From Asterochloris sp. CNOR1 (taxonomy: Eukaryota > Chlorophyta > Trebouxiophyceae > Trebouxiales > Trebouxiaceae), in NCBI GenBank assembly GCA_963969365.1, contig OZ017761.1, positions 1,178,001-1,242,000 of the forward strand: 64,000 bases of DNA. Reading direction: 5' to 3'. The stretch's first letter is position 1, and every line of letters starts with the position of its first letter. The notes beneath the pieces were generated by a model. It searched no databases. It was not told the origin of the DNA and saw only the letters and a list, made by a program, of their open reading frames with translations. Below, piece after piece: positions 4,962-61,736 of this stretch. The translations under genes were made by a program, and so were the position numbers.

Positions 4962-7900
4962 GTAGCAACTTGCCATCAGAGAAAATACCAAGATGCTTTG
5001 ACATAAGCACAGAGGAGGGACACGGCCAGCTCAGCACTGGTTGCTTAATGCAAATGGGGGAGAGAGTGGAGGTGCCTGTGCCGTCACTGAGCTGCCTCAG
5101 GCTAGATACAGCCACACCTGTGGACAAGGCGCTCAGCTTTCTGCAAGGCATGCTTAAGGTAGGCAGGTGGCATGCCCACCAGGGATAATAATTCAGTAGG
5201 GATCGTCCCGCTGAGTCATCTCTTCACAAAAGTGACTGGTGCTGTACCCTGAGCGCACAGACCCCTTGGTGCCTAGCAGACCTCAATCAGCCGACATCAG
5301 CTGCAAAGCCCTCTTCAGCCAACCATTACATGGCCTGCCGGTCCAGGGCAGCCAGGTGGGCAGCTATCTTGCCGGCATGTATGGCTGACAGTATGCAGCT
5401 CGCAGCTGCTAATAACTGGCATGAGCACAGCTGACGCATAGCTTGGTCAAGTGGCATGCTGTATGTGAGCAACAGCGGACGAGCCTCCTTGGCACCTGGC
5501 TGAGCCACATGAGGCATCCTCAAGCTGTGCTCTTGTCATGCCACTGATGGCCCGGCATCTTGCGGGGAAGCTTGCAGGGGCTGCGCTCCAATGACACATC
5601 ATTGTCTGCCAAGTCCGCAGCCAGGTCTGTGGCCAAAGAGGCTGAGCATGCTGGGGACCAAGTTGCTTGCTTATGGTCCTGGAGGCAGGCCTGCTTCTGG
5701 AACCCCATCTCTGGTGTGAGGCGAGGTGCAGCGGCAGCCTTGGGGCAGGCATTCTGGAGCACTTTTGAAACTCTGTGATCTGCGCAGCCACGGAGCTTAG
5801 TTGTATCCTCTGCTTGCAGGGGGAGCGGCCGACCTTTGACGAGACTTTGGAGCTGTTCCAGCTGCTGACAGAGTCCCGGGACCTGCGCCAGCCAGTGCAG
5901 CTTGAGCAGCAGCTCTGGGACGACCACACCCTGGATGACAATGTCACGCGGGCCATGCTCCAGATGTTGCAGGTTGGTCCATACATCTGTGTACATATGT
6001 GTCAATGTCCTGGCCAGCCACAACAGACGAGGGTTGTCTGGGTTGATGTGGCAGGGGCTCCCCACTGCCATGCATGCTGATGTCTGCAGGCAGCGCAGGG
6101 TTAGTGTACCTCGCGGAGCCTTTCTCTTGTCCTGGGACCCCTGTTGGCTGCTGTGGCTCGGGCATACTCTGCTGCAGTCACCTGCCAAACAAGTTGTGTG
6201 ATGCCGGTGGACACACAGAAAGCAGCCAGGTGGCTGCCTTGTAGCTCTGCTGCATGAGGCGGTTATTACAGCGTGTGCATCCCGAGTGTGAACTCATGAC
6301 ACATGGCCGACCTCTGCCCAGGGGCAGAGTGACCCCTGCTGGATGACACAGGACCAGGACCAGCTCCCCAAGCTGGAGAAGCAGCCCTGCAGCATTGCTA
6401 GCACTGTTGACAAACCATGACTCGCGCAAGCAATCTCCGCCGAGGTCTGAATCGCAGCACCTCTGCCTGTCACAAAGCGGCCTTAACAATGGTGGGCAAG
6501 CAGCTGCTCTCACTCTGGTCAAGGGCAGGCCATGCTGCTGCTGAACAGATATCAGTGTGCAGCATCATAATGGCAGGCGTTACTGCGCAGGCTGTCCATC
6601 TGCTGACGGGCGCAGGGGCTCTGTGTTACTGCACAGCCACCTAGGACCTCCCCAGGCTTAGCGCTGCATAGCGACTGCCCTGTTGCATCAACATGGTTAG
6701 GCAGTCGAGTGGTGCACTATCATGGTGCAGGGTCACCGGCCCAGTAGCCACCAGCCGCCTGTCAGCCTTCCCAGGGCTGAGTCCTGTGGGGGCACAGTGC
6801 GCATGACGTCTCTGAGCAGCCGCAGCAGCAGCACCGGCACCAGCCTGATGACGCCAGTCAGCTCGCCTATGCTGCGGGCACACCTGAAGACGATGCACTC
6901 CCAGACCTTTGAGGGTGCTAAGGGCAGCAGCCTTGATGGAAGCCCAATGGGAGGCAAGCCAGCGGGATGCTTGGTGGCGTGGCTGGCTGCTTGGAGGCTG
7001 GCTGCCTGTTTGCCGTCGCTGGTGAAGAGCTCTGTCAGGGTAACACAGGCCTGGTCCGCAGCCTGACAGGAGGCAGTCTGCTGTCTGATCTGGCTGGCTG
7101 TCAAGCCTGGCAGTCTCCTTGAAGGGCTCAAAAGTTTGCACCCCAGAGATGGCCAGAACATGGGCTGCTTGCTGGCCCTTGTGGCAGGCCTGACAATACG
7201 CTCCACAGAGGTGACACCCTGCGAGCTGCTGGTCTGGCTGCCTGCCAGTAGTAAGAGTTCTGTTTGCTGCATGGCTGATGGGCAGAGCAAATAGCACAAC
7301 ATGTGCTTGCTGCAGAGGGTGAGATTGCCAGTCATCAACTGCATGAGCAACGGAAAAGTGCTCTCGTGGTGCCTCTTGCATGCATCCGACTCTTTCTCCA
7401 CAGAGTGGGAGGCACCATGACCGTTCAGATGCACCACCTGTTGCATCTCGCTGTCAGAGCACAGCATGACTGATGGGCAGTCATCAAGAGCACACCGATT
7501 GCTTGCTGCAGATGGGGAGCCTGTCCAGCCATTCAGGCGCACCACCAGTGGCATCCTGCTGTCAAGCCAGTCTACCCGCAGCGCGCCTCCCTTTGCCAGG
7601 CAGAGCAGCACCGGCAGCGGTGCTAATGGCACGTTGTCCAAGCAGCCCTCGGGCGTAAGCGGCCTGCGCGGCGACAGCCGCCGGGGGAGCCTCATGAAGA
7701 CCTCGGGGCTCAGCCAGATGAGCACCACCATTGCAGAGGAGGAGGCCCCAGCTGGTGACCATAGCGGGCTTCACATGGGGTTTGTGGCCTTCAATGGGTA
7801 GCTTGCTGCGTATAGTCTGTCTGCTAAATTGGGGCTTAGCCAGATGAGAGCACCATTGCAAGGGAGGAGGCTCAAGCTGGTAAGCTCACACAGCAGCTCT

Positions 7901-10900
7901 TCAGCAGCAGCCCACCCTCTGAGTGACCCGCCAGGTCGACTTGGCCACTGGCTTCTGCACCTGACAAAGTAGCTTGCTGAGTCTTTGCGACTGTTGCTTG
8001 TGCCCAAAGGAGCTCAAGGCTGAGCAGAGGAGCGCCACCATGGCAGAGGTGTACCAGGCTGATGAGCATACACAGCACACCCTCTAAGTGGACCGCCTGT
8101 AAGTCCCTATGCAGCCCCCTGCAGAGGGACTCAACAAGAAGTAACTTGACAGAATAGTCTGCCTGGTCAGTGAGTTGCATGCCTTACAGTGACGTCAGGG
8201 CTCAGCCAGATGAGCGGCACTAATGCAGAGGCGGAGCTCCCAGTCGGTGAGCACACAAAACCCTGACAGTTGCGGATTCTGACTTGACTTCTTGGGTCAA
8301 ATGCTGATGCATGAGGCTTGGGGCTAAGCCATCAGGAGAGAGGGTCTGGCAAGCTCGGGTGCTTTGTCAGCATGACATCTGATCAGCTGTGCAGCCGCCT
8401 CCTGAAAAGGACAGGGTCGCCCAGGTCAAGCCCACAAATGCCTGACGCTCCCCTTCATGTGGCTGCAGCGTTGCCTGGCATCCCCTGGGGCAACTCCTAC
8501 CCTTGCCCATTTGCAGCAGGGCCTGTGTTCATTGCCTGACCATGACTCTGTATTGCTTGCTGAAACGTCGCCAGGTCTCTTCACTTCCAAGCAAGGTGCT
8601 GGGAGCTTGTTGTGAGCCTGTACTGCAGTTCTTGTTCAGCAGCCGCTGATGATTGGCTGCCCTGCATGGTTTGGCGGTGCCCCTGCCAGCCTTCAAAACT
8701 GCACCCGCCACAGCATGCAGGCTTGCACCACCTCATGCCGGGCAGTCTAAGGCGTGACTTTGCGTTTCTTCTCCACACCCTTTGGCTGCTAGCTTTTATT
8801 TGGGATTTGGAGCTCTTGTGCCTGATGCAGCAGATCTCTGATGCCTGCACGCCGCCATGCAACCTCATGCCCAGGGCAGGGCTGCTCAAGGTGCTGGCCA
8901 CTGGTGTGTGCCTTGTGCCTGCAGCGCAGTGGGGCCAGCACAGGGCTCACTTGTAACCTGCAGCCCTGTGGATGCTATTCCTGACAGTGCACCATGTCCT
9001 GGCGTGCAGCGTCGCCAAGGAGCCCCAGGCACAGCTCCTCACCCTTTGCAGCAGCAGTCGCAGTCAGGCAGGCTCAGCAGGGCGAGGACTATACCCATGC
9101 CACCCCAGTTGGGACCCGGCAGCACCCCAGCACGCCAGGCCCCCGCCCAGCCCGCCGCTCCTTTGGGGATGTCCCTGTCAGCCCGGTGTCTGCAGAGCAC
9201 GTCCCAGTGGGCGCTGCAGCCACCTCTTCACCCAGCAGTGGTAGCCCCAGAGGCGGCACCAGGCCAGCAGCTGGCAGCAGCGGTGCCGCTGTGCAGACTG
9301 CCCACCCAACGGGGGAGCAGGCAGCAGACATGATTGAGGGCAGCGCTGCAATCCAGGCAGCGGCGACAGCTGCCTCCAGAGCGGCATCAGCCTTTCCCAG
9401 GCTGTCTGAGCTGGGGCTTAGGGTGAAGGACCGCCAACTAGTGAGAAAAAAGCTCGTATTGATGTGCACCTTGCTCTGCTATGATGTCCCTGCATGTTTG
9501 GCTGCAAAATGCAAAGTATTTGAAAAATTTGATGCCGCTGCGCAGGATGTCCCTTATGGGGTCATCTCTTAAGTGGTGCTACCTGGTCTCGTGCTGCTTG
9601 CATGCTGCTGACCCTGCACGTGGTTCAAAGCTGGCTGAGGTGTGGACAGTGGCACAGTGGTGGCACGCAGGCGCGCCAACAGCTCAGACCCTCTTGCTGC
9701 CATGCCCCACAGCCATTACGCCTGCAGGTGGTGGAGGCCTTTGCTGGGGAGGAGCAGGTGGACATAGCATTTGTGCCTGAGGCAGCAGCGCCCTCCCCCA
9801 GCGGCATGCGCAGGCGAGGTCCGCCCTTGCGCAGCAAGACCTCCGGGTGCCACACCACGCAGGACATGTCGCCCATGGAGCTGACTGCCTGGCTCAGGTG
9901 ACCTGCCTGTTGAGCGAATGCCTTGGTGTTCCAGATCACATAGTGCCCATGGAGCTCTTAGACTTGAGCAGACTGACAAGTGTGTGGTTGGGCCAGCCCT
10001 TCTTGCTGCTTGGCTCGGGCCGCACACTGACAGGGGCCGTAAGATTAGCTGTTGTCTTTGCCTGGGTCTGCACCACCAACACAGAGCAGGGGGTGGCACT
10101 TCCGTGTTGCATTTGCTCCTTTTCAGGCCAGCACACTGCATGGCACCCATTGGGCTGACTGTCTGTGGGCAGCTCACCGCCTGGCTTTAGTCACCAAAAG
10201 CAGGCCCCAGGCCGGCGTGGGCCTGCTCCAAGCATTGCCCGACCCTAGTCATCCTGTTGAGCAATCCAGCAAGGGCCTGCCCAAGCATAAGCACAAGGCT
10301 TAGTTGAGGTCTCTGCATGACCACAAGACTGATGTGCAATGCATGCCGGATGATTTTACGATCATCTGCAGCATCTTGTTATGTCACAAGGTGCCACAGC
10401 GGTGATCCCAGCGCTCAGTATTTCTGGGCTGAAGTCACTGGTCGGCCCATTGCCTTGAGCTGTATGATGTGGCTGCACAAGCATGGACAAAGGCAGCAAA
10501 GGCTACAGCCCTGTCCTGTCCAGGACAAGCTGCCTGTCGTCTTGTAGACTGGCAGCCCTTGCCTGGTTAGAGACACCCGCTGCGGCGCACCATCTCAGAC
10601 TCCAATGGCCCCAAATGCACCTGCAGGACAGTTGTGGGGAAGCCTGCTGAGCTGAGTCTGGGCACAGCCAGTCTGCTGGCACCGTCTGCTGCAAATGGCT
10701 GCACGTGCACAACAGGAACTGCTGGATGCGCAGGGCAGTGGCTGCTGAACAAGGCTCTTAAGGCCCAGGCAGCAGGACCTAGCAGGGTCTGAGACAGCTT
10801 GTTGACCTGCATACCACTAATTGATTCAATTAAAGGCTGCTGAGCCCAGTTCTGAGAGCTGCACTGCTCACCCACCACACTGAAGGACATTGCCATGCCT

Positions 10901-13900
10901 ACAGAACTGTGGAGGCAGAGGCTGCAGAGCCAGGTGCTGAGAGCTGGATTGGGCCCCCCCAGTTCGTGATCACCACCGAGCTTGAACGCCTGCTTTTGGA
11001 AGCAGAGAATTGCTGGGGGTTTGACGCCTTTCAGATGTCTGAGGCTTGCAGTAACCAAGCCCTATCGGTGCTGACCTTCCACCTCATCAAGGTGGGGGAC
11101 TACAAATAGTGACCATTGAGCAAGAGTCACTGCATATTGCCAGCAGAGTGCGTGCATGCAGTGGTGTCCTGACATCATGTTCCCTAGATGGTGCTGCAGC
11201 ATGCTTCCATCTGTCAGTGCATCATCTCAGCCTTTGACCATCCGTCAATGCACCATCTCACCTGAACATCATCTCGGCACCCTTCCAGCATGCCCGCCGC
11301 ACTCTGCCTCGTTACCACTTGGTGCAAAGCTGTGGGCCCTGCTGCACCCTGCCCATTCAGGCATTGCTACCCCTTGGCCTGCATCTGGCCTCCACCAGCC
11401 AGCTGGCCGCTCATAGTCAGCTTGTGCAGTCAGCAAGTCCTCAGGACATCAGAGTGACCGCAGCCACCACAGCCTGCACGGTGATGCAGGTGTCAGGCGC
11501 TATCGATGAGCTGCAGCTGGAGGAAGTTCGTCTACTCAGCTTCCTGAGGCGGGTGGAGGCAGGGTACATGGACGTGCCATATCACAACAGGTGAATAACA
11601 CTGAGCTGCTGGTCTGGTGCCCAGCCAAGTCTACAGCTAACATGCTGAAAATCAATGGTTGCAGCTGGGTGCTGCAGGCTTGCAGAGACGATTTGCAGTA
11701 TACTCCTGTACGGTGGCATGCTGGACACCATGGTGGGAACCCTTTGTCTGCTGCAGGAGTTGCACAGCCACAGAGCTGCAAGTTATGCGCATGCGCCTGC
11801 TCAAGCTGGACCACCTCTGCTGATGGCAGTTCCCTCAGTAGGAAGCGCACCGCCACCATGGTGCAGGCATTGCACATGCAGCTGCACCCTCTGTGTGCTG
11901 CCAAGCCGTGCGCATTGCTCTACACGAGTACATCGTCCTCAACAGTGGCACTCCTGTGCCTGCAGGAACCACGCGGCCACTGTGGTGCAGGCGATGCACA
12001 TGCTACTGCGCCACAGTGGTATGCAGGAGCAGGGGATTGGCCAGGGGGCTGGCCCCATGCTGGCCTGCTACGTTGCAGCCGCCATGCACGATTTTGAGCA
12101 TGGAGGCCTGACCAATGACTTCCTGGTGGCCTCGGCCGATGAGCTGGCTCTCACCTACAATGACAGGAGCCCCTGGGAGTCGCACCACCTGGCAGCTGGT
12201 TTCAAGCTGCTGCAGAGGCCCAAGTACGACTTTTTGCTGGTGGGTTGGGAGGCCTGCAGCACCAGCTGTACCTGCCTGCTGTCATGCATTGTCTGCGTCC
12301 AGTGCAGAACGTCTGGCGAGGCGCACCATCTGGCTAGTTGCTGCAGAGGCCCGGACAACCTGCTAGTGGGCCACTGCGTCCTGCACTGGGTGTTGCCGAT
12401 GCACGCTGCTGGGTGCCACCCTTTCAGCAGTGCCCATTCCAGCATCCTGCCTGCAGAATGCTCTTGTCAGCTTGTGCTGCTTGTCAGCAGGGGTGGCCTG
12501 CACACAACTCTCCATGTCCTGCCCCCAGTCCAGGCGTCAGACAGACTGGAAGCTCCACCTCGGTTTCCTGCAGAACGCACCTGCCAGCCTGCGCAAGACA
12601 CTGCGCTCCACCATCATAGACCTCGTGCTGGCCACCGACATGAAGCAGCACTTCAACTTCATTAGCAGGTTCCAGGTAGGTAGGCAGAACTGGTCTCCCT
12701 CCTGTTGGCTCAAGCCAAAGGTAGTGGGCCATCCAAATGTGCTCAAGCGTCAGCGTGCCACCACCTGCTACATCCACCATGCGCTACGAAAGGCCAGCGG
12801 CAACCTGCAAGTGTGTCACAGTCTGCTTGTGTTGTGGGGCACCAGCAGTCTGCTGGCAGTGCCCCTAGCAGGTGTTGTGCCCTCATGGGGCAAGTCAAGG
12901 CCCCAGCTGTGAGGAGCCTGCCTGCATGATGTGCAGCAACCCTCTGCAGCCTGTGTGCCACCTGGTGTGCAGCACCTGCTGCCTCCCCACACAGCCTGCT
13001 AACGCTGCTGTGCCCACTGCTGTGCGCAGGCAACCTTCAGAATACGGCCAGAGGGCCCTGAGGGCATCCCCCTCGTGATGCCCAGCTTTGGGGCGGACGA
13101 GCAGACTTTGGCGCTGCAGGTGTGCCCAAAACCTGAAGGGCACGCTACAGCCTTATCAATAGACATCATAACTTTGAGGGACACTTGCCTATTGGGCCCT
13201 TCTGTGCCATACAGCTTGGGTTTGAGAATGAGAGCTTGCCATCTAGGGATCCTGCTGTGCAGCAGGGTGTGCCAATACACGACGCTGCAGCCGCCGTTTC
13301 TGCAGTGCAGTCTGGGCATGAAGGTAAAGGCTAGGCTAACAGGCGTCGTCCATGCAGCAGGCCCCGCCAATGCAGCAGCCGCTGCATTTGACTCCTTTGC
13401 AGGGTGCTGTGCACTGCAAGATCTCGTCCCTGTGGTGACTCCTCCTGGCTGTGGACCGAGAATGCCTGCAGGTGCCTGCACCTTAGCAGACCCTCCCACC
13501 CAGGCAGCAGCACAGGCCTGCTGCCTGTCCTGCATGCGGCACGTGTGCACATGCGAGCCCCTTGGCAACCAACCTGCTGCTGAAACACTTTAAGTCCTTC
13601 ACGGAGACGTCATGAGCGTTGATGCAGGTGGCCCCCTTGACTGTGCGGACGTGAGCCCGAGTTGCAGCAGCAAAGTTGAGTTGGTGATGATGCAGGTGGC
13701 CTTGAAGTGCGCTGATGTGAGCCACTTGGCAGCAGACCCTGTGCTGCACCACAAGTGGGCAATAAAGCTGGAGGAGGAGATGTTCAGGCAGGGGGACTTG
13801 GAGCGTGCCAAGAACATGGCTGTCTCCCCGCTGATGGACCGGCACAGCAGCGCGGGAGGGATCACGCGCACGCAAGCAGGTGCTTTTGTATGGCAGCCGC

Positions 13901-14518
13901 TTGTGCGTGCCCTTCTCACAGCCGCTGCATTTAGTCTGACACAGCAGCATGGGGTGGCATCAGGCCCACACAAGCAAGTGGGGCTGCGGTGGGTGTGGCG
14001 CATGCCAGCGTTGCTGCAGATATGCTTGAGCAGCACAGCATGTGGCAGCACATGCACATGAGCTCATGTAAACTTTTGCACAGGGTGAGGGGTCGCTGGA
14101 TTGCAGGGTGTGCTGTTGGTTGTCATGCTGCCAGCCACATGAGAGTCAGCCTAGTGTGAGGGGCCCTGGCTGTGCTGCAGGTATCCATGGCCCCGTCAGC
14201 TTGGGGTGTGAGCACAAACTACCACCGCCTTGCAGGGCTGTTCGAGAGTGTCATGCTGCCAGGCTGCAGGACAGCCCACATCCTTAACTGCCGTGCAGGG
14301 AGGTTGTGAAATGCCATAAGTTGAGGCTCAGCTGAGGGGTTGATCTCTGCCGTGCAGGGTTTTTCGAGATCGTCATGCTTCCTGCCTTTGACAAGTTCAC
14401 GGCCACCTTCCCAGGTGCCCAGCCCTTTGCAGAGGCAGCCCATTCCAACTACCTCTACTGGAAGGCACTGCAGTCACCACAGAACTCTGTCCTGCCCCCC
14501 AAGGCTGCCAACCCCTGA
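4962..14518 (+). CDS. Class I 3',5'-cyclic nucleotide phosphodiesterase (start not determined)
   Basis: Hydrolyses cAMP and/or cGMP. Exons: 4962-5158, 5820-5972, 6731-6953, 7512-7754, 9010-9440, 9728-9897, 10905-11091, 11490-11590, 11966-12239, 12574-12675, 13030-13119, 13696-13879, 14358-14518; phases agree throughout, about 838 residues from 4962. The catalytic domain starts near 10905 (FVITTELERLLLEAEN). It includes the HD-domain metal motifs PYHNRNHAATVVQ (joined across 11590/11966) and AAAMHDFEHGGLTNDFL, the substrate-pocket segment ELALTYNDRSPWESHHLA, LVLATDMKQHF, the metal Asp in ALKCADVSHLAA, and MDRHSSAGGITRTQAGFFE, ending in a normal C-terminal helix. The N-terminal half is mostly disordered Ser/Pro/Ala-rich sequence with one helical block (4962-5972, TPVDKALSFLQGML). 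Nucleotide specificity cannot be read here. The true first exon lies upstream, in 4548-4961 or under other predicted exons. Confidence 0.92.
7829..8250 (+). repeat. Donor ladder: copies of the end of PDE exon 7512-7754
   Basis: The exon end at 7701-7760 (core GGGCTCAGCCAGATGAG, then CACCATTGCAGAGGAGGAG and donor GCTG|GTGACC) recurs three times in the following intron: 7829-7886 (donor-like GCTG|GTAAGC), a poor copy at 8012-8066, and 8186-8250 (TCG|GTGAGC). A fourth fragment lies at 8305-8340. The copies are diverged and frameshifted relative to the exon. Phase continuity from 7754 to 9010 shows the first junction is the coding one. Confidence 0.7.
11758..11889 (+). repeat. Acceptor-side ladder: copies of the start of PDE exon 11966-12239
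   Basis: The exon start coding NHAATVVQAMHMLLRH is echoed at 11841-11889 (core GGTGCAGGCATTGCACATGC) and more weakly at 11758-11808 (GCAAGTTATGCGCATGCGCC). Steps are about 82 and 125 bases to the true exon. The peptide coded by the nearer copy, TATMVQALHMQLH, still resembles the metal-site helix, but it is not in the reading frame of the gene. Confidence 0.7.
12311..12480 (+). repeat. Donor copy and acceptor copy in one PDE intron
   Basis: The intron 12240-12573 contains first a copy of the upstream exon end (12311-12380; GAGGCGCACCATCTGGCTAG matches the exon's GAGTCGCACCACCTGGCAGC, then TGCTGCAGAGGCCC and a G|GTGGG-like end). It then has a copy of the downstream acceptor and exon start (12448-12480; CCTGCAGAATGCTCTTGTCA against CCTGCAGAACGCACCTGCCA). 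The acceptor copy lies 117 bases before the true acceptor at 12573. Confidence 0.75.
13621..13662 (+). repeat. Acceptor copy before PDE exon 13696-13879
   Basis: GATGCAGGTGGCCCCCTTGA at 13621 repeats the true junction GATGCAG|GTGGCCTTGAAG at 13689. Both continue with TGTGCGGACGTGAGCC or TGCGCTGATGTGAGCC. The step is 69 bases. Confidence 0.75.
14097..14315 (+). repeat. Acceptor ladder before the last PDE exon
   Basis: The true junction GTGCAG|GGTTTTTCGAGATC at 14352 is preceded by copies after CAG at 14107 (GGTGTGCTGTTGGTTGTCAT), 14182 (weak), 14236 (GGCTGTTCGAGAGTGTCATG) and 14299 (GGAGGTTGTGAAATGCC, with the same CTGCCGTGCAG lead). Steps are about 75, 54, 63 and 59 bases. Confidence 0.8.
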
Positions 14519-15218
14519 GCTGGCCCGGGACAGGCCTTGCTCTGGCAGCTGTGGAGGTTGTCAATGGCTGCCGCACCTTATAGGCCTCAGATTCAGCCAG
14601 TTGGCATGGGGAGGCCAGCCCCTGAGCCGGCTGGGCGCTGCCACACACGCACCAGTATACTGCCTGGAGCTCTGGCCCACGTCGCCCCTCACAGGCATAC
14701 TGCTGGCTAAACCAAGTCATCCCTAGTCATTTTGCTAGCACCCATCTTCCATCCATCTGTCGAGGTCCAATTAGATCACAGGGGACCACACCGCAATTGA
14801 CAACCAAGCAGGAATATCTTGCAGCTCACACCCGCCGCATTTGGTTGAATACTGGGCTGTTGCCACCCATATGAGCTGGCACTGTATAGCTGGACCAGAT
14901 TGTTGATACAGTGCTTGCTCATCACTCTGTGTTGTAGCCGTAAGCTGCACATTCTGAATGGGCTGTGCGCACTCGTGTGAGGGCCTGTTTGATATGGCAG
15001 GCCTGCTACGCAGCGCTTTCACAGATCTTTGCAGCAGATCACAATTTGCACAGTCTTTTGAGTTGTGAAACCCGCCGCCGCCTTCGTTGCAAGTGCAATC
15101 TTTGTTGATGCCCACACCATGTTGTCTGATGAAGTCATTTGTAACAATGCAGCATCTTCCTCGGGAAGCATCATGTGCTCACAAACAAGACCTAGCATGT
15201 AATCTATGAGCATAAGCG
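14519..15218. other. Convergent intergenic region, PDE and amidohydrolase 3' ends
   Basis: This should contain both 3'UTRs. A minus-strand open frame at 15019-15276 overlaps the end of the amidohydrolase but has no recognisable domain, and I treat it as fortuitous. No other structure seen. Confidence 0.5.
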
Positions 15219-44930: not shown

Positions 44931-47069
<2,139 letters not shown>

Positions 47070-47285
47070 CCGCCCATGATTCACCCCACTGCCCACCAAA
47101 TTACAAGGTTGAAGCAGCGTTATGGTCAAAGGGCATCTGAGTGAAGCGAGAGCTGAGTGTACCAGTAAAACATGCAAGTATTGCCCTCAGCTGATGTCGT
47201 TTATGGCCAAGCCGGGGCTGGCAGGCTTTGCTGCCAGACATTCTATTACTGCCAGCAGCTCTCACAGCATCATGAGTGATGCTGT

Positions 47286-48574: not shown

Positions 48575-48853
48575 GAATCCCCTAGATTGCTCTGATTCTG
48601 CATCCGTAAGGGCAAGTCAGCGAACGGCCGACATGCCAGGCACCAGGTCACCGAACAGGGCCTACCGCAGATAGGAGCGGACCAGAAGCCACTGGGTCAG
48701 GGCTACGGCCGTGAGCGAGCGATCTGAGCACCCTGGTAGCCAGCGGGGGTTCCAAGAGGGTCTTGCCATTCCTTCTTGCGCAAGAAGGAGCAGTATTGAG
48801 GCCCAGTGCTGAGGCAAAGAGCCTGAGGGGGACCAGATTCAGCTTTCCCAGGC
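48575..48853. promoter_or_regulatory. Divergent interval, NTF2 / LSD1-like gene
   Basis: 279 bases between the two start codons. A perfect short inverted repeat (CCTTCTTGCG CAAGAAGG at about 48771-48788) is visible; its meaning is unknown. A bidirectional promoter is inferred from arrangement only. Confidence 0.4.
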
Positions 48854-51800: not shown

Positions 51801-54800
51801 GTCCCTTGGCGATGCCCTTGACACAGCCTTTGCCCACCGCATCACCCTGCCAGCCGGCGACCAGGAGCACATGGGAGCCCCAATTGCTGACACAGCAGCC
51901 GCCCAGCTGCCTGACCCCACGGCAGGCCAGCCTGCTGAGGTTGGGCCGGGCAGCATGGAGCAGGACGGCGCTACTCAGCTGCCTGTGGACCTTGGGATGA
52001 TGGTCGCAGGGGCAGACATCTCTGGCTTGCCTGAAGCTGACATGGCCAAGGCTGCAGCAGCAGCAGTGGCTGCCTCGGGCGCGCCTTCTGGGGAAGACCC
52101 TGCACAGGCAGCACTGGATGCTGTGTTTGGCGGGGACACCTCCAGGCAGGGCAGCCTCCAGCAGCAGCAGGAGCAGGAGCGGCAGCGACAGGGGGAGGCA
52201 GTGAAGCAGGACACTGAGGCAGACTTTCTGGCATCCATCCTAGCTGACCCTGAAGAGAAGAAGGAAAGCGATGCTGCCACAGCCCAGCTGTCACAATGGT
52301 CTGAGGCCTCAGGTCAGCAGCACCTGGTGGCACAGATGTTGGCTTGCACAAAGATAGTGAGGCAGCGTCAGCCCAGCCGTCGCAGCGGTAGGAGGCTTCA
52401 GATGAAGCGCTGCTGCTGGCTGAGAAAGTTTGAAAGAAGTGGCAGTGTTGCCAGGGGCCGCAATGCTGTGTGTCGCCCTGCCTACTCCTGCGGCACTTGC
52501 TTGGCACGGAAGCACATGCACTCTCAGATATGTGTCTCAGCTCCTGCACACCCGTTCAGCATGGGCCACAACCTGCAGGCGTTGCCATGGCTGTGCAGCA
52601 GTACATTGTGACACCCCACTCTGCTGCTGATGAGTGTGTCTGCTGCAGTTGAACTGTTGATTGGGTAGAAGTCAGGAAGCTGGTGTCTCACATGCCACCA
52701 TGCCTCTCCTTTGTGGTGCAGGTGCTGCAGCAAACCATGGCTCTGCCCCAGCAGCCTCTGCTGTGCCCTCTGCTTCACCGCAGGCCAACAGCAAGCCAGC
52801 AGAGGCTGAGTCAGCAGACAGTAGACAGGCAGTGGTGCACAAGACTGAGCCTGGGGACCCAGAGAGCATGGCAGCAGCAGCTGAGGTGGCAGAGTCCTCC
52901 ATCCCCTCCAGCCTGACAGAGGCTGAACGCCGATTGCTGGACTGGCACTGGGCCAACCTGGAGTACGGCTGCAGCGCCAGGCTGTCTCAGGTGAGGAACT
53001 CTAGTGATGGCTTGCCCTGCCAGGCTGCTGCATTTAGCTGACCTACCTCAGCAACGGCACAGAGCATGTGGCAGTGCCAGCCTGTCTCAGGCAGCCACTT
53101 TACCGTCTCATGGTGCTAAGTGCCTGTGTTCTTGTGCGTCGCCCTTACATTCACAATCAGTGAGAGATTGTGGTCACAGTGTAGCATAAATGCATCCTGC
53201 TTCGAGCTTCCGGTTTTCTGTGTCCTGTTTCGCCAGGAGGGGGAGGTCTGCAAACCTGCAGTTGCTTTAGATGCTTTCCAAACTTTGAGCCGTGTTTGTG
53301 CTTTGCATATTCTGAAGCTGTGCTGCCCCTTGAGCGCCTGTGTAAGGTGCTGTCAGGTGTCCTTGGGTTGCAGACAGAGGGCTCTGGCCACCTGCTAGCC
53401 AATTGGACTGTCAGTACCGGGAACACCTCTTAAGCAAGCTGTCATGCAGATCTCGCTAGCCAACTGGAACCAGGACGAGGAGTTTGGCGGCTTTGGCCCG
53501 CCCCACTGCATGGTCAAGGGCGGGTACGGCGCCTTGACAGACGCCCTGGCCAAGCAGGTGGATGTACGCTTGGGGCAGCCCGTGAAGCGCATTGCTTACA
53601 ACGGGCAGGGTGTGACTGTAACCACCGCCTCAGGTGAGGGCTGTGGTTGTCTGGCTGCTGTCACTGGTGGCCTTGAGGGGCGCAGCGCTCTTACACGGCG
53701 GCTGGGAGAGCAATGTGGTGTATGAACGGGGCAGCTGGTGAAGGGTGGTATGGCTGCGTGCGGCGGTGACCACTGCCTCAGGTAGGTAGCAATGGCATGT
53801 GGACAGCAGAGGCTGCTGGGGGCCTGAGGCACACTGCCTGCAATGAGCTGGAAGTGACTGACACAGTGAGCATTGCCCGCCTTTAGCCACTGATGCAAGC
53901 AGCGACCAGTTCAGGCTGCAGCCTGCTATAATGCAGGCGCCTTCAGCTTCCTTGCCTGGGCATCAGCCACAACAGCCTGGGTGGCTGCAGATCAGATCTT
54001 CAAAGAGCAGCACTGGCAGTAGTGATCGCCACATTGCCAGAGAATATGCATGGGCCAAGTCCAGTGGGCAGCATGTCACCCTCTTGCCAAGAAGTGCTGG
54101 GTGCCTGGCAGCTGCACCAGGCACGTCCCAGGGGGCAGCATGCGGTCTTCTTCACAAGCACTTAAGTAGCGCCTGGCTGCTGCAGGGGAGAAGTTCAGGG
54201 GGCAACGTGTCATTGTGACTGCCACGCTGGGATGCCTTAAGGCTGGGGACATTAAATTTGACCCTGAGCTGCCCAGATGGAAGTGCGAGGCCATCGCCAC
54301 CCTAGGCTTTGGTAACCTGAACAAGGTGCGGAATTGTTGAGATAATACAATCCTGAATCAGCCTTAAGCCATTGCCAGCCGCCATGGGCTGCTCCTGCCT
54401 CCTAATTGACAAGTCAAGATAGCTCATGGCACATTGAATGCCTGTTACAGTGTAAGAGTCATCAATGTCTGACTCACGCCATATGATGGGCTTGCGCCAC
54501 TGCTTCTGCAATTAGCTTCTGAAAGGTTCTGTCGGCAGCCCCAGGCAGGCACTGCTCTGCTTTTCTCTGTGCTGCAGATCTGCATGGAGTTCCCCCACTG
54601 CTTTTGGGATGCTGAGGCAGACTACTTCGGGGTAGCTGTGGGCGGCGGCCCAGATGGGCGTGGGCAGAACTTCATGTTCTGGAACAACCAGCGCTTCTGC
54701 GGCAGGCCTGTGCTGACAGCTCTGCTGTCAGGTGAGGTTTTCCTGCTTCATTGAGCAGACTCTTCTGCGCATTTATCTGCACCATTTGAGGTGCAATTGT

Positions 54801-57800
54801 GCGTGCAATGGCACTGCTGTCACGCCGGCTCTGGAGCATGTAGCTGTTCACATGCAGCCCCTTTGCCGTTCTGCTTCACTGAAGCCCTCTCCATTCCTCT
54901 CATGGTTTCTGAACAGCTGGCACGTAGCCACCCAGCAGCTGCTGCTCCCTGCAGGTGCGTCAGCTGACCGGTGTGAGCAGAAAGGGGAGGCAGAGGTCAA
55001 GGCCGAGGCAGTCAGCACACTGCGGCGGCTGTTTGGGGAACAGGTCCCTGAGCCCACAGCATCTGTGATGACTTGCTGGAGGCAGGAGCCATACAGCAGA
55101 GGTGGGCCACCTGCTGTGTACTACTGCCTTCCCAGACTGCATCGCCCGTGCCATAGCGGAGCTCCTGCAAGCATCACGCAGGCAGCATGGTGTAGGCAGC
55201 AGGACTCCCACACCTTTTGGGTTTGTCTGCTCACACCACACTGCAGCGAACACTAGACTCACTGCATCTCAACATGTATACCCCTCTCTGCTGCCTGCAG
55301 CCCTTCTCAATGATGCCACTGCCGCTGTCTGCAGGCTCCTACTCCTTTGTGGGGCTGGATGCCTCAGGCAAGACCTATGACACCCTGGCCACGCCTGTCC
55401 AGCGGAGGGTGCTGTTTGCTGGCGAACATACCTGCAAGGTGGGTGCATTCTTTGCCTGAGCAGGGTGCTTGAGCATTTAACCACATCTCTGTGCTGTAGC
55501 CTGGTGCGCAGCTGCTCTTGCAGTGGCTGCAAGCAGCTGGGGAGGGCTCATTCACACACAGGGGCTGGCCCTTGTTTGCTGTGATCCACTTGCCTGCACA
55601 TGAGACCCTTGCTGAGGGCCAAGCCGCACGCTGATGACGCTCCCTCTCTGGCATGCCCTGTGAGCACAGCTCAGACTGGCTCCCCTCCGGCCATGGTGAT
55701 GTCTGGGCTTGACTTCCATGGCTGCCGCGCAGGAGCACCCTGACACCGTGGGTGGCGCCATGCTGACGGGCGTGCGTGAGGCTGTGCGCGCCCTGCACAT
55801 GCTCAAGGGCGATGATGAAGATGATGTGGACGTGGCGGCTGGGGCCGTGGACGCACCTGTGCCCTCCAAGAAGCGCAGCCGCGTGAGTCATGATCTTGAT
55901 TCAAAGTGCAGACCTGCTGATGGGACATAGCAGTGGGCTGCTGCAGCTGTTGCTGCTCTGCTTTGTTTCAACTGTGTGAGTCTGGTGTTGGCCAAGAAGC
56001 ACGTCTGGTTGTTTTGCACAGACTGCTGCCGCTGGCAATCCGGCAGGGTAGTGATTGCCTTGCGGTATAAGCGCTGGGTCTTGTCAATGCACCTGCCTAC
56101 TCCAGCAGCTGGGCAAAGGTGGGGACTGCTTCTGTGCATCTGAGTGCATCGGTGCAAAACCTGTCAGAGCGGCCCCAAGCCCAAGTCGGCAGCCGAATAG
56201 AGCCATCTTGTTTTTCTCTGGTGTTGCAGAAGGACCCAAAAGGCTGCAGATGCCCCGGCCTGATCACTTTGCCATGCTGTGACTGTGCGCACTTCCTTCG
56301 TCTGTTGAGATGCCCGGCCGTTTCATGCATCTGCCCTCATGCTCCAGGCGGAAGAGGATGCTGCAGATGCTGCCTTCCTGGCCACTCTGCTAAGCCATGC
56401 TTGTTCACGGTCTGTCAAGCCCCTTCCAGTGTCACCATGTGCGCCCATTCAAGCAACTGACAGAGGCAGAGGGTGCAGATGCAGCCTTCCAGGCCACTAC
56501 ACCATGCCATGACTCTGTTCGCATTGTTGAGCCTGTTATTACCACCATGCCCCTACCAGGTTGAGCAATCAACTCATGCTGCAGGCGGAGGAGGAGGCGG
56601 CAGATGCAGCTTTCCTGGCTAGTGAGGAGGAGGATGGTGGTGCTCATCCCGGCAAGAGGGTGCGCAAGGACAAACCCGCCAGGCGGCGCCGCCCTGAGGA
56701 AGCAACCTACGAATCTGCTGGTAGGCCCGCGACCTGGCGCTTTGCATGATGCGCTCGCTTATAGCTGCTGTGAGACTGCACCAGCACCTTCATTCATCAG
56801 AGTTGGGCTCTGTGCGATTTTGTGGTGCACACGACAGGCATGCGGAAGCAAGCTGCCAGGCGCAGGCATCTTGTGGAAGCCCCTTATAAGTCTGCTGGCA
56901 AGCCAGCCATCAAGCAGTGTGAACGTTGTGGCTTGCAGGCAGGCCTGCATGCAAGTATGTTGCGGGTGGTAGTAATGCTCCAGCGTGGTGAGTGTCTTGG
57001 TGTGGGGCCGAGCTTGTGGGTATCACATGCCAGGCATGCAGGACAAGCCTGTCAGGTACCAACAGCCCAAACGAGCTCCCTGCAAGTTTGCTGGCAAGCT
57101 GCTAGAGGGTACTCTCAGTAACTTTCGTGGTGCATCATGCGTGTAAGCTTTGCTGTATCTGTTTAGGAGCAGCAGGGAAATGCCACACTCGGCAACCCCC
57201 AGCAACGCCGCTAGATGCCAATGCTGATTGCAACAGTACGCTGTTACACGCGATCGGTGTGCAAGCAGTGATAGCGTCGCTTGCAATTAGCCCAAGACAT
57301 CCTCATACATCTAGCTTGCCCCCCACATGATGCTGCAAGCCCGTGCCGACACGCTTGGCAACAGGCTGCAACTGGCAAACAGCATTATTTGCATGTAGCC
57401 CGGGTCACCCCCATGAAGCTTGTGACCTGCTGCAGTGCACCAACAGCGGCGCTTTTGACACTTGCCCAGCCCCTCAGATTCCCTGCAGAGCAACTGATAG
57501 AGTTTGTCAACTCAACTGGTGCTTTCCATCACTTGAAAGTCACTGATATGACTGCAGTGCAGCCCCGATCTTGCAAGGGCTATGACTCTCATTGTGAGCT
57601 GCTGTGATGGGCCCTGGCCGCTGGTAGTTGTCCGCTCATCTCCACAGCTCTGCACCTCCCTGCTGCAGTTGATCGGGAACGGCGCATGGAGGCCGCTCAT
57701 GATGCTGCAGCAGCACAACGACACCTGGACCAGCAAAAGAAGGCAAGGGGGGAGTCGACAGTGATCTGGACTGCCGTTATGATGGCTTCAAATGGTGGGC

Positions 57801-60800
57801 AGCTTGGGTGGTTTCTTGTGTGGTCAAGCTGCACAGCCCCAGTGGGACTGGACCCCTATAAGGCTGCCTGCCTGTCTGTCTAGCTGGTGGACGATTTTGC
57901 AGCCATCTGGACTGCACTTGTGGTGGCCTTGATGACGGAAGTGCCTGTGGTGGCAGTTCCCAGCAGCCTTGCGCCTGCTGTAGAAACACCTGCCAGTGTA
58001 TGGTGCAATATGGTTGCAGCAGAGTTCTGGTCAAGCTCGGCGACGGCCAGTGTGGCAACTCTGAGCACACAGCCTCAGGTAAAGGAGTAGCTGTCTGCCT
58101 GCTTGTTCTAGCACTTGATATCTGCCCAGGTAGACCTTTTCTAACAAAGTCGCAAGCGACCTACAACACCTCCAGCACACAAGCTAATTGCTTCAGGCTT
58201 TGTGCGGGCAGCTATCTGCTGCGGCATGCTCAACATCAAGTGTTTGCTGCAGGCGATTCTGAGCAGCTGCGCCAGGTCATGGACTCTTACAGCAGCCAGG
58301 CACAGCGCTTGCAGGTCAGCCTGCCCAGGGGTCCTGCTGCCAGCTCACATGCAGTCATGGCCCTGATGCGCCTGGCTGCACAGCCCTGCCCCACTTCCTG
58401 CCTGCCTGGGCTTGGCAAGTATCATACTCATGACATCAAGCATCTCCCTTGTTTCTGCCGGCCCTAATGGTGCCTGGCCTGCGTGCAGCCTACCAGTCAT
58501 GCGGTTGCCTGCCATTTCCCACAATAAGGGGCACAACCGTATTTACTGATCCACAGCACATACTGTGCAGCTGTTGAGCACCTTGCTCCAATTTGGTAAT
58601 GCCTGTCCACGTGGTCACCACGTACCCATCTGGTTCTGTTCTCTTGCAGATCCTCACTGCCCTGCTAGACCGGGCAAAGCAGCAGCAGCAGGGGCGGGCT
58701 CTGGGTTCCCTGGCAGCCAACACCGACTTCCTGCAGCAGTTGGGCATTATTCTGCTGGAGGCTGCTAATGAGCCTGGCGGCACCCAGCTGGCGGAGAAGA
58801 CCATGCAGGTGCACTCTAAGGCATGCTGGCCAAGCATCTGCATTTGGCTCAGCAGCAATCTTTGGGCTGGTTGCTGCCCTGCCAGCAGGTCTGCTTGCCG
58901 CTCAAGGCTGTGCAGATTGCTTGCCAGTGCTCACCAGACCACACAGTGAAATTTTCAGTTGGCAAATCTATGGATGTGCATGGCTTTTGCTGCTGCTCTG
59001 CCTAGCTGCAATTTGGGGCCGCATGTTGCGCAGCGGTGCATCATGTGGCCGTGTGGCAATGTCCTGCTCTGGCAGCTTCCAGTTCTGCTTGCAGGTGCAG
59101 GACAGCTATTCTAGCCCCCACAACCTCCTGCACACATAGCAGTATGTTAGCTGCAATTGTTATCCACCACGATGCCCTACAGCATCTCTCAATGTCTGGA
59201 CTGCTGCCCTGCAGGTGCTGGACTGTATGCACATCAGCTGGAACCTGCTGCATTCCGAACAGCTGATCAGCCACGTTGCCTTCTTCACGCAAGACCACCG
59301 CCCCAAAGTCCTGCGGGATGCGGCAGCTGCCCTGCAGCTCAAATGGCAGAGGCAGCATGATGAGGATCGCAGCAGGACGGCCAAACACCAGCAGCGGCGC
59401 ACTCTGGCTGAGAGGTTGGCAGGGCAGAAGGCGCCGGGGCCAGGTGTGCAGACAGAAAGGATGCACATCTGGAAGCTGACGTGGGAACCTTCGGGAAAGC
59501 ACTGTGCTGCAGGCCTGCAGCAGGGTGCTCACTTCTCTGTCCTGTCCCAACCACTGTGTCATGCTACGTACCCAGAGCGCGGGCAAGCAGCTGCTTGTGG
59601 CTTCAGTCATCTGGCTGCAGATCATGTGACTATGGGGTTTCGTGGCTGCTGCTCCGCCGCTGCTCTACTTGTAAGATCAGGGGTGTGCCACGGCCACTAC
59701 ACTGCAGTACCTGCCAAGCACTGTTGTACCGCATGGTGCGCTGTCTCTTTTGCCACTGCCATTGCCTGCAAAGCAGTGCTCTGCAGACCTGCGCCAGTTG
59801 CATTAGCTGCCATGTTGCTGCCCTTGCCCAAAGGTCAGCGACATGCTGCAGATCCACGGGACGGCGCAACTGCTGCTACCCAGAACTCGCCATTGGGAGC
59901 CTCCCCTATGGAGGTGGACACTGCTCCCCAGCCAGTGCCACCTGTTGCCAAGGCTGGCAGCGTACCCCTGGCCATCGAGGTGAGCACAGTCAAAGGACAC
60001 CATGGTATGCTGAAGCGTGACCACGGCTGGTAAGTTGGACCTCAAGGTGGCAGCCAAGGATGCAGAGGATGCCTCATGCCCTTTAGCCTCATGATTCCCA
60101 TGTCTGTCTCAGTCTTAAGTCTAGTGCAGCGCCAGGCGCCCCCGTGCTGTGCAGGAGATGGACCCGAAAGTGGCTGCCAAAATTGCAGAGGCGGAGGCAG
60201 CGCAGAAGCGAGCTCAAGCAGAGGCACAGCAGGCGGCAGAGGAAGCCCTGGCCATTGAGTCGCAGCTGCAGCTCCAGCAAGAGGCTGCCGGGCAGCAGGT
60301 GAGGATGGTCGGGGTGCACGTATCAGGTTGCGAAGGAGCTCTGGAGATATTCTGTGGGTTGCAGAGCTGAAAAACAAGTTGCAGGTGCCCCTGTTCCTGC
60401 TGATTGGCAGCATGACATGGACATCCTGAGGCGTCTGACGCCCCGCAGCCTCCTGTTAGCATCAGCAGCTGCAGAAACCCTCCAGGTGTCTTGCGAATAT
60501 TCGAATTTCTTCATTGAGCACACTGCATGCAGCGCTGCAGCCCAGGTGATTTGTCAGCTTCACCTACCTAGTGCTGACCTCTGGTCAGCTCCATGTTGCG
60601 TTGTAGGAGGACTTGCTGCCATCCCAACGCAGAATGGCTCCCTGCAGCTTCAAAGATTTGCAGATGTCATTGGCTGCCCATCTCATGGATGCCCAGTGTG
60701 CTGCATGTCCTGTCAGCTTTATGTTGACAGGCCCAGTACCCACATTGCATCAAGCAGTTCTGCACGAGTCTGGTACCGCTGCAGGCACAGGACGGCTTTG

Positions 60801-61736
60801 TCAGCTTCCAGCGTTTCTACAAGGACCAGTTGAAGGCCCAGCAGCAGCGGAAGGCCAACAAGTATTCCAACAGGGGGCGGCAGCACCACCACTCACAGCC
60901 CAGCTCCAAGCACAAGGCGGCCGACAAGGGCAGGGACAGAGTGCAGGAGATTGGCAGTGGGGGTCCCAAGGAGAGGCAAGGATCCGGCGGCGAGGCGGCC
61001 ACCAGACAAAAGGTCAGTGGCTTGCAAGACTGTACCGCGTGAAACAGCTGGCGGCGGCAAGAGCTCTTGGGTGGAATCGCATTGAGCTGTTGCTATGTGG
61101 AGCAGCAAGGTGTGCTTGAGAGTCCTGTGCAGGGGAAGCTGTGTGACCTGCCTGAAGCTGTCAAGGGCAGATGCAGTTGTCCCGTTGCAGCTGTGCTATG
61201 CACAATATATGCAGGAGCCCTGCTCTAAGTGTTCCTAGAGCCCTGCCTGCAGCTGTCCAAGGAGATTGATGATTATGCAGCTGTTGTGCTGAAGCCTGTC
61301 TTCAAGTCGAAGCAGCTCTCCAAGGAGGGATACAAGTGGGTGGTGAAGAGCACCGTTGAAAAGGTGGGCCGTGCTGCTTTGGAGTGCCTTTTGGCTGCTG
61401 TTGGCCGCCACTGCACGTTTGAGGTGGTGGTCAGTACATGGCCATGCAGATGACTGCCTCCCATGCATAGCAACACTGCAACTGTGCAGGTGCATCTGGG
61501 GTCTTGCTGCTGCCATTGATGCTCACAAGATGGCTGTGTTGCCAGGACTGGGGACTGCCCCATTTGATTTGCCTGACAGATGGCTTTTGCGCATTTGCAC
61601 CTGCACACCTGTCGTCTGTGTGCAGGTGCTCCGCGGAGCCACAGGCAACCCTGCTGAGGGGACATTCCTGACAGACGCGCGCAAACAGAAGATTGACAAG
61701 CTGCTGGCTGAATATGTGAAACGCGCACCAAAATAA
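48854..61736 (+). CDS. LSD1/KDM1-like histone demethylase with DEK_C and apparent TND/SRI-like C-terminus
   Basis: FAD amine oxidase of the H3K4me1/2 demethylase family. In-phase exons: 48854-49047, 49196-49260, 49426-49620, 50074-50162, 50456-50710, 51070-51245, 51358-51527, 51797-52312, 52722-52990, 53450-53633, 54186-54325, 54578-54731, 54955-55101, 55335-55438, 55733-55882, 56585-56720, 57669-57742 (GC donor). Order: SWIRM (RWHANDRQYFSLSEAL, WRFLHEQGYINTGVL), DEK_C (PTDAELTRWVVEKLQKADMT), FAD site VVGAGPAGLAAALHLK, VVLEARERVGGRVYTH, an Ala/Gln/acid-rich insert of about 250 residues where LSD1 has its tower, WNQDEEFGGFG, the LSD1-type Lys in GFGNLNK, and LFAGEHTC. A basic NLS-like stretch follows (GKRVRKDKPARRRR). 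Later exons (58253-58314, 58650-58808, 59215-59443, 59834-59979, 60155-60298, 60411-60485, 60758-61012, 61253-61363, 61626-61736) give TFIIS-N-like and SRI-like segments. Joins at 57743-58252 and 60486-60757 are unresolved, so two genes remain possible. Confidence 0.85.
49681..49882 (+). repeat. Donor ladder: copies of the end of LSD1 exon 49426-49620
   Basis: The exon end CTTGCATGAGCAGGGGTACA ... CTCCCAGCATGCAC|GTGAGAG (donor 49621) recurs at 49681-49757 (CCTGCACACGCACTGACT ... CTCCCAGCATGCTT|GCAAGTG, donor-like 49750) and at 49802-49882 (CTCTGCACGAGCAGGGTCCT ... CTGCCAGCATGCGC|GTGAGTG, donor-like 49874). About 70 bases of exon are repeated each time. Steps are 129 and 124 bases. Confidence 0.85.
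53728..53788 (+). repeat. Donor copy after LSD1 exon 53450-53633
   Basis: The exon end GGGGCAGCCCGTGAAGCGCA ... TGACTGTAACCACCGCCTCAG|GTGAGG recurs as GGGGCAGCTGGTGAAGGGTG ... GCGGTGACCACTGCCTCAG|GTAGGT. Step 146 bases. Confidence 0.8.
53980..54150 (+). repeat. Acceptor ladder before LSD1 exon 54186-54325
   Basis: The exon start (CAG|GGGAGAAGTTCAGGGGGC, AACGTGTCATTGTGACTGCC) is echoed at 53980-54037 (GATCTTCAAAGAGCAGCACT), 54060-54102 (TCCAGTGGGCAGCATGTCAC) and 54125-54150 (CCCAGGGGGCAGCATGCGGT). Steps are about 70 bases. Confidence 0.7.
55562..55604 (+). repeat. Donor-side copy after LSD1 exon 55335-55438
   Basis: GGCTGGCCCTTGTTTGCTGT ... ACTTGCCTGCACATGAGACC resembles the exon end GGAGGGTGCTGTTTGCTGGC ... 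CATACCTGCAAG|GTGGGTG. Diverged single copy, about 160 bases downstream. Confidence 0.55.
56228..56584 (+). repeat. 118-bp acceptor ladder before LSD1 exon 56585-56720
   Basis: Three units precede the true exon start CAG|GCGGAGGAGGAGGCGG, CAGATGCAGCTTTCCTGGCT. Copies begin after AG/CAG at 56230 (AAGGACCCAAAAGGCTGCAG), 56348 (GCGGAAGAGGATGCTGCAGA) and 56464 (AGGCAGAGGGTGCAGATGCA). Steps are 118, 116 and 121 bases. The downstream halves of the units also match one another (GCCATGCTGTGACTGTGCGC, GCCATGCTTGTTCACGGTC, GCCATGACTCTGTTCGCAT), so whole units were copied. Confidence 0.85.
56850..57105 (+). repeat. Donor ladder after LSD1 exon 56585-56720
   Basis: The exon end CCGCCAGGCGGCGCCGCC ... CTACGAATCTGCTG|GTAGGC recurs at 56850-56905 (CTGCCAGGCGCAGGCATC ... 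TTATAAGTCTGCTG|GCAAGCC) and 57050-57105 (CTGTCAGGTACCAACAGCCC ... TGCAAGTTTGCTG|GCAAGC). Both copies carry GC rather than GT at the donor. Steps are 177 and 196 bases. Confidence 0.8.
59089..59122 (+). repeat. Acceptor copy before exon 59215-59443
   Basis: CTTGCAGGTGCAGGACAGCT at 59091 resembles the true CCTGCAG|GTGCTGGACTGTA at 59208. Step 119 bases. Confidence 0.65.
61148..61203 (+). repeat. Acceptor copy before exon 61253-61363
   Basis: CCTGCCTGAAGCTGTCAAGG then GTTGCAGCTGTGCTATGC matches the true CCTGCCTGCAG|CTGTCCAAGG then TATGCAGCTGTTGTGCTG. About 50 bases are shared; step about 93 bases. Confidence 0.75.
61483..61517 (+). repeat. Acceptor copy before the last exon 61626-61736
   Basis: CTGTGCAGGTGCATCTGGGG resembles the true GTGTGCAG|GTGCTCCGCGG. 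Step about 135 bases. Short match, so moderate confidence. Confidence 0.5.

What the first reader, a model, noticed from the sequence alone, without database searches (positions are those of the whole stretch)
7829..61517. Introns in many genes carry tandem copies of the adjacent exon-intron junction (splice-junction ladders)
At least seven unrelated genes (PDE, M20D amidohydrolase, SOUL, ABCG, centrin, FabG, LSD1-like) show the same thing. Intron sequence contains one to five diverged copies of the neighbouring exon edge with its splice dinucleotide, in the same orientation and usually 60-200 bp apart. Donor copies lie at the 5' side of introns and acceptor copies at the 3' side. This is not a dispersed element: each ladder matches its own exon, not the others. 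It looks like recurrent local tandem duplication across AG|GT-type junctions, related to tandem-duplication models of intron gain, but lengthening existing introns. It would explain the large introns and would supply decoy splice sites and raw material for alternative exons. I cannot tell whether this has been described before.
Basis: partly seen in the sequence, partly recalled or inferred. Interest (0 to 1): 0.88.

Follow-up and report, generated by a model that had tools for sequence, protein, structure and literature searches.

The report
Decayed exon-edge copies inside algal introns
In this green alga, some genes carry old, decayed copies of the end of an exon inside the neighbouring intron, most likely left by short local DNA duplications that did no harm there; they are a visible trace of how introns can gain sequence and decoy splice sites.

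Summary
The core observation is real and found beyond the window, but the gene list was over-read. In the window plus six 50-kb segments of the same genome, 60 of 801 exon edges (7.5%) have a same-orientation copy in their own adjacent intron, against 9 of 7968 in introns elsewhere and 1 of 801 on the opposite strand. Genome searches with two ladders returned only themselves. In the window PDE and LSD1 are supported, M20D weakly; SOUL, ABCG, centrin and FabG are not. Copies look like decaying non-coding sequence. Copied blocks are short, centred on the junction, mostly with unrelated sequence between the copies. Simulated blocks of 40-80 bp crossing a junction reproduce that profile; whole-interval tandem duplication fits worse. 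Intron-only pairs are about as common (55 against 60), as random placement predicts, so junction targeting is not needed. Unexplained: near-identical young copies are rare. Detected blocks are 3.2% of intron bases, so intron size is not explained. Closest precedents: staggered-break repeats in Daphnia neointrons and a junction-crossing duplication in potato.

The parts
7512..7754 (+). exon of the PDE-region gene, source of the donor ladder (last ~50 bp)
   Evidence: gene model; pairs with 7831-7881 at 86.5%, 8191-8253 at 81.0%, 8010-8070 at 73.8%
7829..7881 (+). donor-edge copy 1 in intron 7755-8228, GT kept
8010..8070 (+). donor-edge copy 2
8191..8253 (+). donor-edge copy 3
7407..7464 (+). 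copy of the acceptor edge of exon 7512-7754, in intron 7319-7511
   Evidence: 83%, d 108
10832..10877 (+). acceptor-edge copy, source 10917-10961 (PDE gene)
   Evidence: 78%
10073..10165 (+). donor-edge copy, source 9798-9891 (weak)
   Evidence: 69%
13541..13631 (+). acceptor-edge copy, source 13705-13795 (weak)
   Evidence: 62%
13892..13976 (+). donor-edge copy, source 13787-13878 (PDE gene)
   Evidence: 70%
16063..16252 (-). M20D: tandem pair of a whole ~78-bp exon with both splice sites, 105 bp apart, both open in the same frame
17673..17774 (-). M20D donor-edge copy, source 17808-17906 (weak)
   Evidence: 60%
16842..16911 (-). M20D acceptor-edge copy, source 16723-16795
   Evidence: 72%
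49507..49620 (+). LSD1-like SWIRM exon, source of donor copies
   Evidence: gene model; exon matched by relatives' proteins
49792..49888 (+). LSD1 donor-edge copy, GTGAG kept
49716..49790 (+). weaker LSD1 donor-edge copy (66% over 76 columns)
52346..52401 (+). LSD1 donor-edge copy, source 52257-52312
   Evidence: 71%
56336..56419 (+). acceptor-edge copy, source exon 56585-56720
   Evidence: 87% over 47 bp; 65% over 72 bp
56820..56897 (+). donor-edge copy, source 56635-56720
   Evidence: 73%
60033..60068 (+). acceptor-edge copy, source 60156-60191
   Evidence: 78%
314..371 (+). acceptor-edge copy, source 407-463
   Evidence: 74%
26962..27097 (-). intron-only head-to-tail repeat in an ABCG intron (66-bp unit, 87%)
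27777..27964 (-). intron-only repeat array in an ABCG intron (period 73)

Best explanation
These are decayed remains of short (about 40-80 bp) same-orientation local duplications that fell at random within genes. Most have unrelated filler between the two copies, as repair of staggered double-strand breaks can leave; some are plain head-to-tail duplications. A duplication inside an exon changes the protein and is lost. One that crosses a single splice junction leaves the mRNA intact if the outer splice site is used, so the extra exon edge becomes intronic and drifts, while selection holds the true exon edge and keeps the pair recognisable. Shown: local, direct, own-intron-only, junction-centred, non-coding-like decay, intron-only counterparts. 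Inferred: the break-repair origin, neutrality, loss of the other classes by selection, and that the outer site is the one used.
For: Local direct pairs exceed shuffled and distant controls in the six segments tested: 86 at >=35 bits against 0 in shuffles, while local inverted pairs are 22 against 8; 127 against 2 at a 5-kb offset. Copies only across the adjacent junction, 45 of 696 against 1 of 632. Coverage of exon bases peaks at the junction and falls to a few percent of the peak beyond 90 bp; simulated junction-crossing blocks reproduce the profile (median exon extent 39 or 49, observed 41), whole-interval tandem units do not (63-65). No mean homology outside the blocks. Exon:intron-only 60:55, within the simulated 0.45-1.32. 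Divergence 0.239/0.250/0.289 by codon position; CpG lost in copies 78 against 29 the other way; splice dinucleotides kept in 23 of 49 testable copies, about 0.60 expected.
Against: Young copies are too few: 5 of 60 exon pairs reach 90% identity, where steady formation predicts about a quarter to a half, so formation slowed or copies start out diverged. The PDE ladder shows spacer homology, as tandem duplication of a larger unit would. Spacer length does not grow with divergence. In-frame stops in copies are 11 against 20.6 expected (sd 4.7), with smaller shortfalls in the two control frames. Segment C3 holds 24 of the 55 intron-only pairs; without it the ratio is 50:31, above the simulated range. 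The simulation assumed blocks that cross the junction; copying from anywhere in the exon was not simulated.
Confidence: 0.6

Rival explanations
1. Ordinary head-to-tail tandem duplication of the whole interval (about 100-250 bp) across the junction; the intron half has decayed beyond recognition because both copies drift.
For: PDE spacers share diverged motifs (7908-7932 with 8073-8097, z 6.1); a 95%-identical duplication of 59-bp period crosses a predicted donor in control segment C5; old ages with large indels give a similar aligned fraction for exon pairs (0.33-0.34 against 0.29).
Against: Predicts a median exon part of 63-65 bp, observed 41; intron-only pairs at >=84% identity show no homology beyond the block (mean z -0.08, n=14); 8 of 115 pairs abut; predicts far fewer intron-only pairs if all are old.
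Confidence: 0.22
2. Copies are functional: alternative exon ends or decoys kept by selection.
For: Slight shortage of in-frame stops in copies (11 against 20.6); similarity of exon pairs clusters at 75-85% with few young copies; the M20D exon pair keeps both splice sites and frame.
Against: Near-flat divergence by codon position and offsets modulo 3 of 22/15/23; donor GT kept in 16 of 29 and acceptor AG in 7 of 20 testable copies, not above the ~0.60 expected; none of the four relatives' LSD1 proteins used aligns to the intron copy.
Confidence: 0.08
3. A junction-directed process copies exon edges into introns.
For: Copied blocks are centred on the junction; without segment C3 the exon:intron-only ratio is 50:31.
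Against: Adjacent duplications that leave one copy in the intron must cross the junction anyway (geometry; profile matched), and intron-only pairs are common in proportions close to random placement.
Confidence: 0.1

Closest known systems
Staggered double-strand-break repeats in newly gained Daphnia pulex introns (PMC4202315; passages incl. the abstract's end seen)
   Same: Direct repeats inside introns and repeats of exon-terminal bases; [quoted passage not shown]
   Different: There exon-intron repeats are 4-12 bp, and internal repeats mark new introns (55 of 90) more than established ones (100 of 617); here blocks are about 40-80 bp, decayed, in introns not known to be new, and inside the intron rather than at its far end.
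Tandem genomic duplication model of intron gain (Rogers, Hellsten as cited there) and the potato RdRp case (PMC4974935; passages seen)
   Same: The potato duplication crosses an intron-exon boundary.
   Different: There a new intron arose; here existing introns gain decoy edges and no change in intron number is shown.
Small tandem duplications by fill-in at staggered breaks (PMC8355091; passages seen)
   Same: Small local direct duplications at breaks with complementary overhangs; induced overhangs were as small as 43 bp.
   Different: Made in mouse ES cells and described as tandem; the passages I saw mention no spacer.
Introner elements (PMC9860276; search listing with the start of its abstract)
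   Same: They shape intron content.
   Different: Introners copy themselves into many genes; here each tested ladder matches only its own gene.

Membership tests
Dispersed repeat or introner family | similar copies in many unrelated genes | tested here: not met
   15 distant pairs at >=35 bits in six segments against 9 in shuffles; PDE and LSD1 ladders hit only themselves in 56.4 Mb
Tandem-duplication intron gain (Rogers type) | duplication within or across an exon | tested here: met
   copies hold exon edge and often the splice site
Tandem-duplication intron gain (Rogers type) | a new intron is created | not testable with these tools
   no related algal genome was available here
Tandem-duplication intron gain (Rogers type) | copies abut and homology spans the whole unit | tested here: inconclusive
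   8 of 115 pairs abut; no mean flank homology; PDE ladder has some
Staggered-break duplication with filler | direct repeats flanking unrelated filler | tested here: met
   on average over 100 testable of 115 pairs; profile fits 40-80-bp blocks
Staggered-break duplication with filler | occurs in any tolerated sequence | tested here: met
   60 pairs touching an exon and 55 intron-only, near simulated ratios; 50:31 without segment C3
Staggered-break duplication with filler | break-repair origin | not testable with these tools
   needs young events or mutation-accumulation lines
Mutually exclusive exon duplication | copy keeps coding constraint and both splice sites | tested here: not met
   for the set as a whole; the M20D pair at 16063-16252 is an exception
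Known structured RNA repeats (e.g. snoRNA) | Rfam match | tested here: not met
   0 matches at gathering score in the window and 7 of the 30 fetched loci (134 kb)

The most novel reading that the evidence does not exclude
A past burst of short break-repair duplications seeded a sizeable share of this alga's exon edges with junction copies and then nearly stopped, leaving a genome-wide fossil layer of decoy splice sites that helped shape present introns.
Probability: 0.25. Interest if true: 0.75.

Novelty: new variant of a known kind. Interest (0 to 1): 0.55.

Why it matters
How introns grow is mostly credited to transposons or left open (general knowledge). Here constrained exon edges act as a ruler: only one side of an exon-edge pair drifts freely, so it should stay recognisable longer than an intron-only pair (inference), and the size, rate and age of local duplication inside genes can be read from one genome. 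It also offers a natural test of how splicing tolerates a near copy of the splice site next to the real one.

Tried and rejected
A first unsupervised gene finder drifted to ~38-bp exons and was dropped. It was replaced by one seeded with 27 exon peptides, checked by Pfam and, for LSD1, by proteins of relatives. In one search the ABCG fragment was only a few exons and I gave them in the wrong order for a minus-strand gene, so its weak hit (below cut-off) is no test of ABCG; the ABCG name rests on motifs seen (recalled). Low-scoring short exons, one part of a long LSD1 exon and the second M20D exon copy were left out of the stitched proteins. Interspersed family: rejected. Plain tandem duplication at constant rate: rejected by ages and aligned fraction. 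Spacers growing with age: no correlation. C-to-T hypermutation of duplicates: C>T and G>A are not in excess per base over T>C and A>G; only CpG is raised. Known structured RNA: none in the 134 kb searched. The extension test is faulty (its regions overlapped) and is replaced. blastn drops pairs closer than about 50 bp (recalled; a 43-bp repeat was missing), so one search used a diagonal scan. The 91-point threshold was taken from the controls on six of the seven segments. Dropped before counts: exons scoring under 4 or shorter than 50 bp and introns outside 80-3000 bp, 11 of 60 hits whose alignment ends more than 6 bp from the junction or at an intron end. Simulations (35, 41, 43, 59) use hand-set mutation, indel and age ranges: comparisons, not estimates. 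No second eukaryotic genome was available, so whether the rate is unusual is unknown.
Full report
Setting. The window is 64 kb (57.6% GC) from contig C16 of a 56.4-Mb, 21-contig genome. The best-scoring LSD1 relatives are from Trebouxia sp. C0005 (48% identity over the query), Myrmecia, Coccomyxa and Elliptochloris. Size and GC resemble Asterochloris glomerata as published (56 Mb; 56-62% GC in 98% of the genome; 9 introns per gene on average; PMC6652019, passages seen).

Gene models. A gene finder seeded with 27 peptides settled on donor CAG|GTGAGC and acceptor CTGCAG|G, median intron 245 bp. Of nine stitched window proteins, seven hit a family above its cut-off: PDEase_I (7.7e-52), Peptidase_M20 (9.9e-25), SOUL, EF-hands, adh_short (1.7e-59), Amino_oxidase (6.5e-73; SWIRM just under its cut-off) and CAAD; one had no hit, and an ABCG fragment, mis-ordered by me, hit only below cut-off. 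Proteins of four algal relatives align to the LSD1 exons, the source exon at 49507-49620 included.

Is it more than chance? Local direct pairs (25-600 bp apart, >=35 bits) number 86 in six segments against 0 after shuffling; local inverted pairs 22 against 8; pairs more than 3 kb apart 15 against 9 (pairs there are not made non-redundant). By diagonal scan, 127 near pairs against 2 at a 5-kb offset. Of the 60, 34 are donor edges (in all seven segments) and 26 acceptor edges (in six; none in C3). In one search, 45 of 696 edges matched the adjacent intron and 1 of 632 the exon's other flanking intron, so the sidedness is real. Introns with a copy have a median of 435 bp against 264.5 overall, partly because longer introns offer more room.

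In the window. Junctions beating all of about 150 control introns: PDE 4 of 26, LSD1 2 of 30, its downstream part 2 of 19, the first gene 1 of 6; none in SOUL (8), ABCG (87), centrin (9), FabG (10), CAAD (10), SnoaL-like (7), M20D (23) or unassigned (5). For M20D few introns match its 1-kb intron, which limits that test; two of its edges pass the pooled threshold, at 60% and 72% identity. The PDE donor ladder has three copies; copy-to-copy identities (0.62-0.73) are below exon-to-copy ones (0.74-0.81), as expected if the exon is the conserved source. Whole-genome searches with the PDE and LSD1 ladders return only the window itself; that tool skips very common words.

Nature of the copies. Over the 60 hits, mean identity is 0.756 and divergence by codon position 0.239, 0.250, 0.289. 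Exon CpG became TpG or CpA in the copy 78 times and the reverse 29 times, so the copies are the decaying side. Splice dinucleotides survive in 16 of 29 donor and 7 of 20 acceptor copies that could be tested; about 0.60 is expected from neighbouring bases (binomial p 0.71 and 0.037, together 0.079). In-frame stops are somewhat rare (11 against 20.6 expected; control frames 34 against 40.4 and 34 against 38.8), a weak hint against strict neutrality.

Geometry and mechanism. Coverage by copies is 5.5% in the last 20 exon bases, 1.5% at 50-60 bp depth, about 0.1-0.3% beyond 80 bp, and 2.4% at 10-20 bp into the intron (58 of 727 edges, 5 of these matching by intron bases alone; 0 of 727 controls). 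Simulated blocks of 40-80 bp that cross the junction reproduce this; tandem units as long as the observed offset do not. The simulation assumed crossing, and copying from anywhere in the exon was not simulated; the near absence of copies of exon interiors speaks against it. Beyond the aligned blocks there is on average no residual homology (100 of 115 pairs testable, mean z 0.02). Whole-unit tandem simulations give mean z 0.16-0.72, apart from one setting with nine intron-only pairs at -0.38; the old, indel-rich settings (0.16-0.22) are not far from the data. With confident exons only, 60 pairs touch an exon and 55 are intron-only; segment C3 supplies 24 of the 55, and without it the ratio is 50:31. 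Random short duplications allowed only where the mRNA survives predict ratios of 0.45-1.32. So attraction to junctions is not required by the pooled data: junction-crossing copies survive because they fall into the intron, and stay visible because the exon side is constrained. A mild junction excess is not excluded.

What does not fit. Only 5 of 60 exon pairs and 6 of 55 intron-only pairs reach 90% identity, whereas constant formation predicts about a quarter (model) to a half (model). Either formation slowed, or copies are made imperfectly, or selection holds them at intermediate similarity. I favour slowing but cannot show it. The PDE ladder has repeated spacer motifs, so some events were larger or repeated tandem steps.

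Literature. Nine searches of the held library, of which I saw only the top 1-15 rows each, showed no title or abstract start on exon-edge ladders in green-algal introns; the library lacks most subscription papers, so this is weak. Closest are the Daphnia neointron study, the potato RdRp case and break-induced small tandem duplications. I file it as a new variant of a known kind: longer, older-looking, spread over the sampled genome and in introns not known to be new.

M20D is now called weak, the C3 effect and the assumption are stated, and the confidences moved slightly for that reason (best 0.62 to 0.60, junction-directed 0.08 to 0.10).

Noticed in passing
window 16063-16252 (-): M20D amidohydrolase: a ~78-bp exon is present twice, 105 bp apart, each with acceptor and donor, separated by only ~30 bp; the two could be mutually exclusive or fused in frame.
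   Followed up: partly
control segment C5 (joined L016-L020), positions 18655-18815 (-): A duplication of 59-bp period, 95% identical over 73 bp, across a predicted donor with both GTAAGC sites intact; a further match lies 115 bp away. The youngest-looking ladder seen, though the next (14-bp) exon there is weakly predicted.
   Followed up: partly
control segment C3 (joined L011-L015): Much richer in intron-only local repeats than the others (24 of 55 pairs), including a ~94-bp-period array at 7577-7844.
   Followed up: no
control segment C8 (joined L021-L025): Six direct pairs 600-3000 bp apart at >=35 bits, against two in the other five segments together.
   Followed up: no
window 48863-61733 (+): The LSD1-like protein (SWIRM-like, DEK_C, amine oxidase) appears to continue to a region at 61247-61378 that also matches the Trebouxia relative, making one gene of about 13 kb.
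   Followed up: partly
predicted junctions of the six segments: Acceptors are very uniform, CTGCAG|G (T 0.88, G 0.95, C 0.95 before AG), with a weak upstream pyrimidine signal.
   Followed up: no
window 40440-40525: A two-copy 43-bp head-to-tail repeat, 93% matches, in a predicted ABCG intron.
   Followed up: no
115 local pairs, seven segments: Near-identical young pairs are scarce both among exon-edge and intron-only pairs; cause unknown.
   Followed up: partly
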